DNA from: Arcicella rosea
GTDB lineage: Bacteria > Bacteroidota > Bacteroidia > Cytophagales > Spirosomataceae
Reading direction: 5' to 3'
DNA: 64,000 nucleotides
NCBI RefSeq assembly: GCF_014204325.1
Contig: NZ_JACHKT010000001.1
Location: forward strand, 1-64,000
Shown piece after piece: positions 35,709 through 57,503 of this stretch (position 1 is its first letter; the number at the start of each line of letters is the position of its first letter). A program made the position numbers and the translations under genes. The notes under the pieces are model-generated. The model was not told the DNA's origin and ran no database searches. It was given only the letters and a program-made list of their open reading frames with translations.

Positions 35709-36650
35709 ATGTCAGCCCAAAAACTTATTTTCCTTTATTCTGATTCCACTTTCACACCGTGGAAAGAAAATATTTTCGGAAGTACCATTGCTACTTTCTT
35801 GAAAGCTACACCCGACAGTTATTATCCTTATGTAACACATTTTGTGGGTTTTACGACAGAGTTTGCTGATTTCTTAAAGCAATTCGATGTGGTTTTTAAT
35901 GTATGTTATGGTTTCGGAGAAGCAGGTCAGGCGGATATTGCCCGTTGGTTAGATAGCCATGCTATCAAGCACACTGCTAGTACTTATGAAGTACAAATTT
36001 TAGCGAAAGACAAAATGAATCTTCCACAAATCTGTGAAGAAATACAAGTAAAAACACCTCCAATTATCGAACTCAGCGATGTCGCTTCTTTAGAATACGA
36101 ACGCTATATTGTAAAACATCGCATGGGAAGTTTGCATTTGAATATGTTGGTTTTTGATGCTTCTGAAATACCTTATCAGACTTTGATGGAGAAAGAGGAC
36201 TACATTATTCAACCTTATATTACAGGGCGTGAATTTACAGTTGGGGTAATTCCGAATGAAGATGGAACTGATTATATGGCTTTATCGCCTTTAGAGATTC
36301 GTCCTGATGATAACAGAGAAGTATATATAGCAGGACAAGCCTATGGAGTAACTGAAAAAATCTTAAATCCAGCGTTGGAAGAAAGTATCCGTCAGGAAAT
36401 TATGCAAAAAGTTCTGACTTTACACAAAACCATGAAAATTAGAGGAATGTCTAGAACAGATATTCGTATTCATAATGGTGAAATTTATGTGTTGGATATT
36501 AATACAATGCCCAATTTAGATGCTCGTAGTTTTTTGCCGAGTATTGCTTTGAATGAAGGTATTGATTTGAAAGAACTTTTCCGTAGAATTTTATTGATGA
36601 CTCAATCAGCGTTTAGCTATGAACTACGAGCTGTAAGTTATGAGCTTTGA
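35709..36650 (+). CDS. D-alanine--D-alanine ligase-like ATP-grasp protein
   Basis: The 313-residue protein has an ATP-grasp fold: FNVCYGFGEAGQADIARWLD near the N terminus, the KHTASTYEVQILAKDKMNLP loop, RYIVKHRMGSLHLNM, YIIQPYITGREFTVGVIP and the metal-binding end IYVLDINTMPNLDARSFLP. It resembles D-Ala--D-Ala ligase but lacks the true ligase gene neighbours, so it probably joins another amino acid or peptide. The final residues FSYELRAVSYEL are encoded by an intergenic repeat that has extended the frame, so the original end was about 12-15 residues earlier. Confidence 0.82.
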   Translation: MSAQKLIFLYSDSTFTPWKENIFGSTIATFLKATPDSYYPYVTHFVGFTTEFADFLKQFDVVFNVCYGFGEAGQADIARWLDSHAIKHTASTYEVQILAKDKMNLPQICEEIQVKTPPIIELSDVASLEYERYIVKHRMGSLHLNMLVFDASEIPYQTLMEKEDYIIQPYITGREFTVGVIPNEDGTDYMALSPLEIRPDDNREVYIAGQAYGVTEKILNPALEESIRQEIMQKVLTLHKTMKIRGMSRTDIRIHNGEIYVLDINTMPNLDARSFLPSIALNEGIDLKELFRRILLMTQSAFSYELRAVSYEL

Positions 36651-36805
36651 GCTGTGAGCTGTGAGCCTTGAGATTTTATTTTAGCCTTGAAAAGTTAGTT
36701 ATGAGACTTTCGCTGTAAACCTTTTAAAAGTGAGTATTTAAGTTGATAATTCAAAACTCATTGCTAAAAACTCATAGCTCATTGCTCAAGGCTTATAGCT
36801 TATTT
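36607..36805. repeat. GAGCTGTGAGC-type simple repeat region
   Basis: The sequence is made of variants of TGAGCT(G/T)TGAG followed, after a spacer, by the inverse form (CTCATAGCTCATTGCTC), making an imperfect large hairpin. It begins inside the 3' end of the ATP-grasp gene and fills most of the gap to the next gene. The style is the same as other dyad repeats at 24222-24341 and 38088-38121. Confidence 0.55.
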
Positions 36806-54786: not shown

Positions 54787-55326
54787 ATGATGAAAATATT
54801 AAGAGTTATCCTGATTATCCTAGCAATTTTAGCTTCTGTAGCAGTTTTATTTAGATTTTACTATACCAAATCATTTAGTCCATCTTCAACGGCATCATAC
54901 GAAAAAAATGGTTTAAGTATTACCGTAGATTATTGTCAGCCTTCCAAAAAAGGCAGATTGATTTTCGGAACAGATTCAGAAAAAGCCCTCGTACCTTATG
55001 GAAAGTGGTGGAGAACTGGAGCGAACGAAGCAACAGTCATTAAGTTTTCAAAAGATGTAACAATTTCAGGAAAATTACTCAAAGCAGGTACATATACGCT
55101 CTTTACCATTCCAGAAAAAGGAGATTGGACAATCATTTTCAATGCTGAAGTTGGGCAATGGGGTTTATCTTATGATGAAAATAAAGACGTTTTGAGAGTA
55201 CCAGCTCCATCTACACAAACAACAGATAACGCAGAAAAATTTACGATTGATTTCAATGAAAAAGAAGTAGGCGTTGATATGATTTTACATTGGGATACTA
55301 CAATTGTAAGCGTTCCGATTCAGTAG
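54787..55326 (+). CDS. DUF2911 family membrane-anchored protein
   Basis: The 179-residue protein has an N-terminal membrane anchor or uncleaved signal (about 3-27) and a DUF2911 domain: YEKNGLSITVDYCQPSKKGR, VPYGKWWRTGANEATVIKFS, LKAGTYTLFTIPEKGDWTII and VGVDMILHWDTTIVSVPI. The family is common in Bacteroidota and of unknown function, with an all-beta domain outside the cytoplasmic membrane. Two ATG codons are adjacent at the start. A structured tandem array follows the gene. Confidence 0.88.
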   Translation: MMKILRVILIILAILASVAVLFRFYYTKSFSPSSTASYEKNGLSITVDYCQPSKKGRLIFGTDSEKALVPYGKWWRTGANEATVIKFSKDVTISGKLLKAGTYTLFTIPEKGDWTIIFNAEVGQWGLSYDENKDVLRVPAPSTQTTDNAEKFTIDFNEKEVGVDMILHWDTTIVSVPIQ

Positions 55327-55383
55327 TTTCATTTTGCATCGAAATCAAAAAATAAACATTTTGCGGTTTTCTTCGGTTTTGAC

Positions 55384-55572
55384 ATACTTGAAGTATCTCG
55401 TGATATACTTTGAGTATGTCGATAGATACTAAATACCGCAAAATACCGCAAAAAAGTATCTCGTGATATACTTCAAGTATCTCGTGAGATATAAATTACC
55501 GCAAAATACCTCAAAAAGGAGTCTCTCAATATACTTGAAGTATGTCGGGAGACTCTTTTTATATCAATAGCT
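55384..55572. repeat. Three tandem 63-bp units with conserved hairpins
   Basis: Units 55384-55446, 55447-55509 and 55510-55572 align without gaps; the first two share the 20-mer AAGTATCTCGTGATATACTT and end ACCGCAAAATAC. The 13-bp near-palindrome ATACTTnnAGTAT starts at 55384, 55405, 55468 and 55531, all spaced by multiples of 21 bases, with a degenerate copy at 55426. Each unit contains a longer stem: AGTATCT/AGATACT in the first, TATCTC/GAGATA in the second and GAGTCTC/GAGACTC in the third. The sequence of the stem varies while pairing is kept. Confidence 0.75.
55513..55560 (+). terminator. Terminator hairpin formed by the third repeat unit
   Basis: AAAAAGGAGTCTC pairs with GAGACTCTTTTT (one bulged G) and a T-run follows, with the ATACTTGAAGTAT palindrome inside the loop. 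It is likely to end transcription from the DUF2911 gene and would also work in reverse. Confidence 0.65.
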
Positions 55573-55704: not shown

Positions 55705-56727
55705 ATGGATAAAAATGAAAAATGGATATGTTGGTATAGCTCGCTATTGATTGCCTTGCTTGTTAACGCTACTCGTTTGTTGGCTTTGAGGGAGAAAGGT
55801 ATTATTGCTCGCTACTGGCAATTTGATTTTGCCGAATACAGTTTTCAATTGTTGTATAATTTGGCATTTTGTGGATTACTTTTTTACCTTAATCTAAATC
55901 CTTACCGAAGTTTTGCACAAATTCGTGAGCAAAAGAAATATGGTTTGTATTACTTGTTCAATGCTTTTGCGGTGCTTTTGGCTATCATGGTTGGTACATG
56001 GGTGCAGTCGCATTTATTTGCCGAAAATCATCTGAATGGTGTTGTGCGTGCTGGTTATTTAGCTCGTTTTGGATTGAGTACATTACTTGTTGCCATTATT
56101 GTTAAGATAATTTTATTGCTCCGAGAAAGTAAACGCAAAGACAATGAACATGAGCAATTGAAAAGCCTTTACTTGGAAGCTCAGTTGGAGTTATTGAAAG
56201 AACAACTCAATCCACATTTATTATTCAATTCCCTCAGTAGTTTATCAGGCATCGTTAGGGAAAATCCCAAATTGGCACAATTTTATATTGTCCATCTTTC
56301 CAAAGTATTTCGTCATGCCTTGGTGCGTGCTGGAACAAGTTTGGTTACGGTGGAAGAAGAACTTAGTTCGCTCAAATCTTACGAACAACTTATCAAAATG
56401 CGTTTTGAAAATGCCTTTAGTGTGTTGATAGATATAGATGAACCATTTTATTCAGCAATGATTCCCCATTTATCTTTACAGCCTTTATTGGAAAATGCTG
56501 CCAAACATAATATTACCACGCTTGAAAAACCTTTGTCTGTTCGTATTTATACGGAAGGGAAATGGCTAATTGTGAGTAATAATTTGCAAGAAATAACAAC
56601 GCCCGAAGGTAGTACTGGTATAGGTTTGGTTAATCTGAATGAGCGTTTTAGATTACTTTTCAATGCTGACATTGAGATTGAAAAAACAAAAGAATCCTTT
56701 AGCGTTAAATTGCCTATCAAAATATGA
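55705..56727 (+). CDS. LytS-family sensor histidine kinase
   Basis: The 340-residue protein has four membrane helices (about 10-140), a helical linker (LRESKRKDNEHEQLKSLYLE) and a His_kinase domain with KEQLNPHLLFNSLSSLSG, N-box PLLENAAKHNITTLEK and TGIGLVNLNERFRLLF. It overlaps the next gene by 4 bases (ATGA), so kinase and regulator are translationally coupled. It is the third LytS-type kinase in this window. Confidence 0.92.
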   Translation: MDKNEKWICWYSSLLIALLVNATRLLALREKGIIARYWQFDFAEYSFQLLYNLAFCGLLFYLNLNPYRSFAQIREQKKYGLYYLFNAFAVLLAIMVGTWVQSHLFAENHLNGVVRAGYLARFGLSTLLVAIIVKIILLLRESKRKDNEHEQLKSLYLEAQLELLKEQLNPHLLFNSLSSLSGIVRENPKLAQFYIVHLSKVFRHALVRAGTSLVTVEEELSSLKSYEQLIKMRFENAFSVLIDIDEPFYSAMIPHLSLQPLLENAAKHNITTLEKPLSVRIYTEGKWLIVSNNLQEITTPEGSTGIGLVNLNERFRLLFNADIEIEKTKESFSVKLPIKI

Positions 56728-57503
56728 AAGAATTACGCTTAGTATTGGTAGAAGATGAGGTCGTCACTGCCCGAAATTTGGAATATGTATTGAAAAATCT
56801 GAACGAAAAAATCAGCATTTTAGCGATACTCCAAAGTGTAAGCGAAGCGATAAACTGGTTCGAGAACAATCAATCACCATACGATTTAGTTTTTATGGAC
56901 ATCAGATTGGCGGATGGTTTATCGTTCGACATCTTTAAAAAAGTAAACATCAATCGTCCAGTTATTTTTGTGACTGCCTATAATGATTACGCCATTCAAG
57001 CATTTAAAAATAATGGCATTGATTATATCCTGAAACCATTTGACGAACAGGAAATTGAGCAAGCTTTAGCTAAGTTTGAAAACCTAACAAAACCTTCTGA
57101 ACAGGAATTGGACGGGAAAAAGTTAGCCCAATTGTTGGACAATGTAAATGCTGGACTAAAATCCTATAAAAAATCTTTCCTTGTTCATCATCGAGATAAG
57201 TTATTGCCTTTAGAAACAGCTAAAATTGCTTGGTTTTATACCAGCAACGAAATTGTATATGCTCATACTTTAGATGATAAGCAGTACATCATGGAGTTTT
57301 CGATGGAACAATTAGAACAGCAAATCGACCCAGCACTATTTTTCAGGGCGAATCGTCAATTTATTGTCAATCGCAAGGCTATTCTTGAAATTGAATTTTA
57401 CTTCAATGGTCGCCTTTCTGTAAAAGTAAAACCCGAACCTACTGAACACATCTTAATTAGTAAAGTAAGAGTATCAGTTTTTAAAAATTGGATGAATAAT
57501 TAA
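56724..57503 (+). CDS. LytTR-family response regulator
   Basis: The 259-residue protein has a receiver domain with VEDEVVTARNLEY, phospho-acceptor Asp in DLVFMDIRLADGLSF and Lys in DYILKPFDEQEIEQAL, and a LytTR DNA-binding domain from about 155 (KSFLVHHRDKLLPLETAKIA, FFRANRQFIVNRKAI). It partners with the kinase encoded with a 4-base overlap. Target promoters are unknown; the hydroxylase-like gene downstream is a candidate by position. Confidence 0.93.
   Translation: MKELRLVLVEDEVVTARNLEYVLKNLNEKISILAILQSVSEAINWFENNQSPYDLVFMDIRLADGLSFDIFKKVNINRPVIFVTAYNDYAIQAFKNNGIDYILKPFDEQEIEQALAKFENLTKPSEQELDGKKLAQLLDNVNAGLKSYKKSFLVHHRDKLLPLETAKIAWFYTSNEIVYAHTLDDKQYIMEFSMEQLEQQIDPALFFRANRQFIVNRKAILEIEFYFNGRLSVKVKPEPTEHILISKVRVSVFKNWMNN

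What the first reader, a model, noticed from the sequence alone, without database searches (positions are those of the whole stretch)
55384..55572. Tandem 63-bp array with helically phased palindromes and compensated stems
Seen directly: three 63-base units in register, and a 13-base palindrome (ATACTTnnAGTAT) starting at 55384, 55405, 55468 and 55531, with a degenerate copy at 55426. The intervals are 21, 63 and 63, all multiples of two helical turns. Each unit also has an outer stem whose sequence differs between units but stays paired (AGTATCT/AGATACT, TATCTC/GAGATA, GAGTCTC/GAGACTC). Kept pairing with changed bases points to selection on a folded RNA or cruciform rather than on sequence. 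The same-face spacing would also suit cooperative binding of a dimeric protein. Upstream TTTTGCGG (55359-55366) is inverse to the CCGCAAAA inside the units. I know no described element of this form.
Basis: partly seen in the sequence, partly recalled or inferred. Interest (0 to 1): 0.72.

Follow-up and report, generated by a model that had tools for sequence, protein, structure and literature searches.

The report
Phase-locked intergenic palindrome repeat arrays

Summary
The array is real, but the 63-base unit is three 21-bp modules: two carrying inverted AGTAT half-sites and one CCGCAAAATACCGCAAAA spacer. It is not unique. I collected 26 related arrays in three subfamilies from this genome (G000, 5.31 Mb), all in 21-bp phase (0 of 429 scored windows fit better off phase). 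The RNA/cruciform reading is not supported: 14 distinct units show no covariation beyond shuffles, and the half-sites are conserved as sequence. A wider survey was unexpected. In 1.264 Mb of this genome, 20 of 38 non-coding, non-CRISPR tandem arrays have periods that are multiples of 21 bp (mostly 42), in about 14 sequence groups; stretches of six relatives give 1 of 16. Best reading: dispersed minisatellite-like DNA elements whose spacing is held to whole helical turns, for this family probably because a protein binds the half-sites cooperatively. The protein, the dispersal machinery and any function are not shown. Rivals are a duplication mechanism that only makes 21n units, and a REP/RAYT-type parasite.

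The parts
55359..55381 (+). Left leader TTTTGCGGTTTTCTTCGGTTTTG, the left end shared by many copies; near-inverse of the internal spacer
   Evidence: 8 places in G000 match TTTGCGGTTTTCTTCGGTTTTT with at most 2 mismatches, 13 with at most 3; reversed-pattern control 0
55383..55390 (+). Partial module (right half of a 21-bp module, ATACTT half-site)
   Evidence: phase register
55391..55432 (+). Two 21-bp palindromic modules of unit 1 (AGTAT...ATACT half-sites)
55433..55453 (+). 21-bp spacer ATACCGCAAAATACCGCAAAA
   Evidence: its core ACCGCAAAATACCGCAA occurs at 20 places in G000 within 2 mismatches, reversed control 2
55454..55495 (+). Two 21-bp palindromic modules of unit 2
55496..55516 (+). 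21-bp spacer of unit 2 (TTACCGCAAAATACCTCAAAA)
55514..55560 (+). Third unit: array tail merged with a terminator-like hairpin (AAAAGGAGTCTC...GAGACTCTTTTT), probably the terminator of the DUF2911 gene (inference)
   Evidence: MFE -25.1 kcal/mol, z -6.1; terminator-like hairpins follow the DUF2911 gene in G008, G003 and G007 with no array. The simple terminator scan reported none here; its loop limit of 3-8 does not fit this long hairpin.
54787..55326 (+). Upstream gene, DUF2911 protein
   Evidence: PF11138, E 3e-51
55705..57503 (+). Downstream histidine kinase and LytTR response regulator genes
   Evidence: PF06580, PF04397, PF00072

Best explanation
The window array is one copy of a dispersed, non-coding intergenic DNA element: in many copies a shared left leader, followed by a variable run of 21-bp modules. 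Each module carries inverted half-sites (AGTAT/ATACT here, GATAG/CTATC in the sister subfamilies), so dyad axes fall every 10.5 bp. Arrays grow by tandem duplication (inferred from near-identical neighbouring units) and have spread to many intergenic sites (the spread is shown by copies on many contigs; the machinery is not known). The spacing is held to exactly two helical turns. The most likely reason (inferred) is that a dimeric or oligomeric protein binds the conserved half-sites on one face of the DNA, so that off-phase variants are lost. In the window the array lies between the DUF2911 gene and its probable terminator, so it may be transcribed as a 3' UTR without acting as an RNA (inferred).
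For: Dispersed copies: a 241-base query hits 17 places at 8 loci; 26 arrays in three subfamilies were collected. Exact phase: lag 63 identity 0.73 against 0.27/0.25 at 62/64 (A); lag 21 0.43 against 0.19/0.23 at 20/22 (B); lag 42 0.77 against 0.30/0.27 at 41/43 (C); off-phase lags (1 to 4 bases away) are better in 0 of 429 scored windows. The eight best-paired dyads of nine B arrays lie on a 10.5-bp lattice (30, 61.5, 93, 103.5, 114, 124.5, 135, 145.5). Half-sites are nearly invariant while module centres vary without compensation. Of the 18 copies between co-oriented genes I count 11 with and 7 against transcription, which fits a DNA-level role. GATAG-type 21-bp arrays also occur in G092 of another genus, with different module sequences and a 63-bp super-period.
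Against: No binding protein was identified. The 42-bp arrays of other sequence in the same genome cannot all be bound by one sequence-specific protein, so phase may have another cause. Gene context of the survey arrays does not differ significantly from background (convergent 5 of 18 vs 31 of 211, p 0.17). A phased A-tract signal over the 20 survey arrays was not significant (Fisher p 0.12). Of the lattice dyads in B, at least two (30 and 145.5) pair less well than shuffled rows (z -2.4 and -2.7). Single-base slips exist in G092 (one) and in 5 of 637 windows of the other 21n arrays.
Confidence: 0.42

Rival explanations
1. Functionless minisatellites: a mutational process (for example staggered nicking or duplication on protein-bound DNA, or template switching between dyads) produces only units of 21n bp, and nothing selects for them.
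For: 20 of 38 non-coding, non-CRISPR arrays in 1.264 Mb have 21n periods (binomial p 5e-17 at 1/21, 3e-8 at 1/7). Merged by blastn links into 14 groups the excess stays (14 of 32: 6e-11 and 5e-5). Several arrays have homogenised centres and diverged edges (by eye). Long perfect inverted repeats in three family B arrays (arms 22, 25, 26) would suit templated copying, but the control there was poor.
Against: The related families stay in phase despite heavy substitution, where neutral indels would be expected; half-site sequence is conserved.
Confidence: 0.33
2. REP/BIME-like elements moved by a Y1 (RAYT) transposase of this genome.
For: G000 has 6 Y1_Tnp matches; a GATAG-type array lies about 340 bp from one of them and a GAGCT-type 42-bp array within a few hundred bp of another. 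Subclass 2.6 tnpA genes of Bacteroidetes are flanked by atypical structures with copies elsewhere (PMC6006769, section read).
Against: By eye, 0 of 6 Y1_Tnp loci are flanked by the window-type modules within the about 1.5 kb or less on either side that was held, and several carry their own unrelated palindromes.
Confidence: 0.12
3. A structured RNA, or a transcription terminator or attenuator array.
For: Single units fold well (z -3.4, -4.9 and -6.1); the last unit looks like a terminator.
Against: No covariation beyond shuffles; no Rfam match; arrays lie in both orientations relative to neighbouring genes, 11 with and 7 against.
Confidence: 0.07
4. Decayed or short coding repeats of seven codons.
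For: 21 is a multiple of 3. Some copies leave open frames, and the GAT frame is free of stops in 6 of 13 B arrays.
Against: In the GAT frame the six C arrays hold 2-4 stops each, many through CTCCGA/CTCTGA exchange, and 7 of 13 B arrays hold stops. Enrichment is for 21n, not for 3n in general (20 of 38 against an expected 1/7).
Confidence: 0.04

Closest known systems
BrickBuilt minisatellite/MITE of Porphyromonas gingivalis (PMC4596501; abstract and passages seen)
   Same: An intergenic repeat in multiple copies (19 in one strain), with a leader and a run of short tandem units of variable number
   Different: 23-nt units without spacers, a tail, and terminal inverted repeats like those of ISPg1/ISPg9; here 21-bp modules, inverted half-sites, no terminal inverted repeat recognised, several subfamilies
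REP/BIME elements with RAYT (PMC3733652 and PMC6006769; passages and one section seen)
   Same: Multi-copy palindromes arranged as inverted pairs and tandem groups
   Different: Strict 21-bp phase; no cognate RAYT flanked by the window-type modules was found
Iterons and similar cooperative binding arrays (recalled, from no call)
   Same: About 20-bp repeats spaced by whole helical turns
   Different: Dispersed over many chromosomal sites; no replicon or partition gene context noticed

Membership tests
REP/BIME with RAYT | A Y1 transposase gene flanked by the same repeat | tested here: not met
   By eye, 0 of 6 Y1_Tnp loci carry window-type modules in the flanks held; one has a GATAG array about 340 bp away
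REP/BIME with RAYT | 20-40 bp palindromes tagged GTAG or CGTC | not tested
   no systematic tag search was made
MITE | Terminal inverted repeats and target-site duplication | tested here: inconclusive
   Leader shared by many copies but missing in some, right ends heterogeneous (by eye); no close relative with an alignable empty site
Minisatellite/VNTR | Tandem units of about 10-100 bp with copy number differing between loci | tested here: met
   variation between strains was not testable
Known structured RNA family | Match to an Rfam model at gathering score | tested here: not met
   0 matches in 64 kb
CRISPR | Identical repeats with unique spacers | tested here: not met
   Spacer-like segments are themselves repeated
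LytTR binding site | Short direct repeats bound by the LytTR domain (recalled) | not testable with these tools
   Copies sit by other genes; binding was not tested

The most novel reading that the evidence does not exclude
This bacterium has a genome-wide process that creates or keeps intergenic minisatellites preferentially when their unit is a whole number of double helical turns (21, 42, 63, 84, 105, 126 bp), across many sequence families. That would be a nucleosome-phasing-like rule in a bacterium, acting through a DNA-wrapping or filament-forming protein or through a duplication machinery that measures helical phase.
Probability: 0.4. Interest if true: 0.8.

Novelty: new variant of a known kind. 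Interest (0 to 1): 0.6.

Why it matters
Tandem repeats are not expected to share one unit length across unrelated sequences. A bacterial genome in which about half of the sampled non-coding arrays are locked to 21n bp would point to a hidden constraint of chromosome-binding proteins or of the duplication process. It gives a natural experiment on which of the two it is.

Tried and rejected
Compensated stems: counted on 14 distinct family A units, no excess. A scan of nearly 300 possible dyads in 9 family B arrays gave the highest z at 103.5 (3.15), where the C20 array has a 26-bp perfect inverted repeat, and a second at 101.5 (z 3.01, only 45% paired); with so many axes neither is taken as proof. 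A test of long perfect inverted repeats used a flawed control (row types not matched) and is not relied on. Curved DNA from phased A-tracts: not significant over 20 arrays. Dyad symmetry is not shared by all survey arrays: Fisher p 1.3e-6 over 20, but only 6 of 20 have p below 0.05 alone. Preference for convergent genes: 5 of 18 arrays against 31 of 211 array-free gaps, p 0.17. Homologues elsewhere: exact patterns in viral contigs 0 and in genome contigs 4; in the 550-600 bases around each of these 4 no module was seen. No blastn match in plasmids or phages. Window query: 0 of 58 relatives other than G000. GATAG-type query: 5 of 199 other family genomes, strong only in G008 and G092, the other three with E above 1e-4; only 3 candidates per genome were scored, so this is a lower bound. 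Literature: searches listed BrickBuilt and REP papers but no title or abstract on 21n-locked arrays; the library lacks most subscription papers.

Rows dropped: in the survey of 60 arrays, 15 inside long ORFs and 7 CRISPR pieces were set aside before the 20 of 38 count; one of the 15 had period 42. Near misses at 39, 40, 41, 43 and 44 bp (one each) are in the 38; the 43-bp row adjoins a counted 126-bp array. The six relatives' 1 of 16 also excludes arrays inside long ORFs. One of 15 family A units, identical to another, was left out of the alignment. In one search, 18 of the 20 arrays could be placed between two called genes.

Full report
Check of the observation. The array is at 55391-55552 with period 63 and 2.6 copies. 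The 13-base palindrome is at 55384, 55405, 55468 and 55531 only, against 0.14 expected. Cut into 21-mers the array reads as half-site module, half-site module, spacer, so 63 is 3 x 21.

It is a dispersed element. In its own genome (G000) the array matches 17 places at 8 loci. The left motif TTTGCGGTTTTCTTCGGTTTTT occurs 8 times within 2 mismatches, with no reversed-control match. A GATAG-type sister family shares the leader and spacer style, and a third group has another leader, CAGAATATTATTTGGTTTT. I collected 26 arrays: 7 A, 13 B, 6 C; this is a hand-picked set, not a census. Half-sites differ by one symmetric base pair (GTATC/GATAC against CTATC/GATAG), and the C11 and C31 arrays mix both types.

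Phase. Autocorrelation peaks are sharp at 63 (A), 21/42/63 (B) and 42 (C) and collapse one base away. In 0 of 429 scored windows is a lag 1 to 4 bases off phase better. In nine aligned B arrays the eight best-paired dyads lie on a 10.5-bp lattice. Stops in the GAT frame of all six C arrays and of 7 of 13 B arrays argue against coding; 6 of 13 B arrays are open there.

No RNA covariation. On 14 distinct A units (one identical unit left out) neither the nested hairpin nor the local hairpins exceed shuffles. AGTAT arms are nearly invariant and centres vary freely, the pattern of sequence-specific half-sites. Of 18 copies between co-oriented genes, 11 lie with and 7 against transcription (counted).

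The third unit. Relatives G008, G003 and G007 have a terminator-like hairpin soon after the DUF2911 gene and no array; G001 and G005 were not folded. G008 also keeps the thioesterase-DUF2911 order. G003 has AAAAAGGAG...CTCCTTTTT, and the window's third unit is AAAAAGGAGTCTC...GAGACTCTTTTT. I read the third stem as the gene's terminator merged with the array tail; this is inference. The simple scan found no terminator here; its loop limit does not fit this hairpin.

Relatives. 0 of 58 other relatives match the window array. Of 199 other family genomes, 5 match a GATAG array, strongly only G008 and G092. The G008 copy lies in a SusCD-type segment shared with G000 C16; the piece with the array is 91% identical and the flanking stretches 90% and 91.5%, so it seems to have travelled with that segment and diverged at the genes' rate. 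G092 has two GATAG arrays with a 63-bp super-period (best lags 126 and 63) in 21-bp phase, with one single-base slip, and a third copy with flanks like those of C16.

Survey. To see whether 21 bp is peculiar to this family I scanned 1.264 Mb of G000 (the window plus parts of C1, C3, C4, C6, C9, C10 and C11, leaving out stretches of C9, C10 and C11 already looked at). 60 arrays were found; 45 are not in long ORFs, 7 of these are CRISPR pieces, and 20 of the remaining 38 have 21n periods: 13 of 42, four of 126, one each of 63, 84 and 105 (binomial p 5e-17 at 1/21). The 20 are not all independent: blastn links merge them into about 14 groups, and 14 of 32 still gives 6e-11 at 1/21 and 5e-5 at 1/7. 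Some groups sit on different contigs and share only the array: L082/L169 89%, L158/L167 88% inverted, L137/L159 78%; the L169 query finds 4 loci in G000, and only short weak matches (E above 1e-4) in 6 of 58 other genomes. Some arrays show significant dyad symmetry, most do not (6 of 20 below 0.05; Fisher p 1.3e-6). Slips are rare there (5 of 637 windows). The same scan over stretches of six relatives (G008 400 kb, G007 300 kb, G005 200 kb, G011, G028 and G033 100 kb each) gave 1 of 16 non-coding arrays with a 21n period; Fisher p 0.001 against 20 of 38, 0.007 against 14 of 32.

Interpretation. Shown: dispersal, 21-bp phase, half-site conservation, absence of covariation beyond shuffles, 21n enrichment in the sampled part of this genome. 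Inferred: protein binding, growth by duplication, and selection as the cause of phase. The window array is best seen as one copy of a phase-locked, minisatellite-like DNA element. It may work like a cooperative binding array, but membership in REP/BIME or MITE families was not established: a defining feature of REP/RAYT was not met, and that of MITEs is inconclusive. The genome-wide rule is the more surprising result and the least explained.

Limits. The survey covers about a quarter of it. Genes were called by simple ORF length. The host group (Bacteroidota, Cytophagales-like) is inferred from gene content, not from a call.

Noticed in passing
G000 C6:172028-181242 (L155, L156): Large CRISPR-like array, about 9 kb with about 73-bp period and repeat ending ATAAGGATTGAAAC; no cas genes examined.
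   Followed up: no
window 36600-36670 and 36757-36804: Heptanucleotide-like tandem repeats (GCTATGA/GCTGTGA), an STRR-like pattern (name recalled), read by TRF as period 21.
   Followed up: partly
L049, L051-L054: Several Y1 transposase genes of this genome carry their own distinct palindromes, e.g. GTCGTAGGTTCTTCTACGAC and CACGGGTTTCCAACCCG.
   Followed up: partly
L032, L064, L199: A SusCD-type segment with its intergenic array is about 90% identical between G000 and G008, and G092 shares the array's flank: possible horizontal transfer.
   Followed up: partly
L022:1361-2608: Transposase-like gene (mutator/IS256-like by eye, not searched) next to a family A array, with a long hairpin between them.
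   Followed up: no
L168:12546-12851: A strong 41-bp array (identity 0.96), a clean exception to the 21n rule.
   Followed up: no
L117, L128, L131: In the stretches sampled, relatives G007 and G005 carry 14-15 bp arrays and no 42-bp ones.
   Followed up: no
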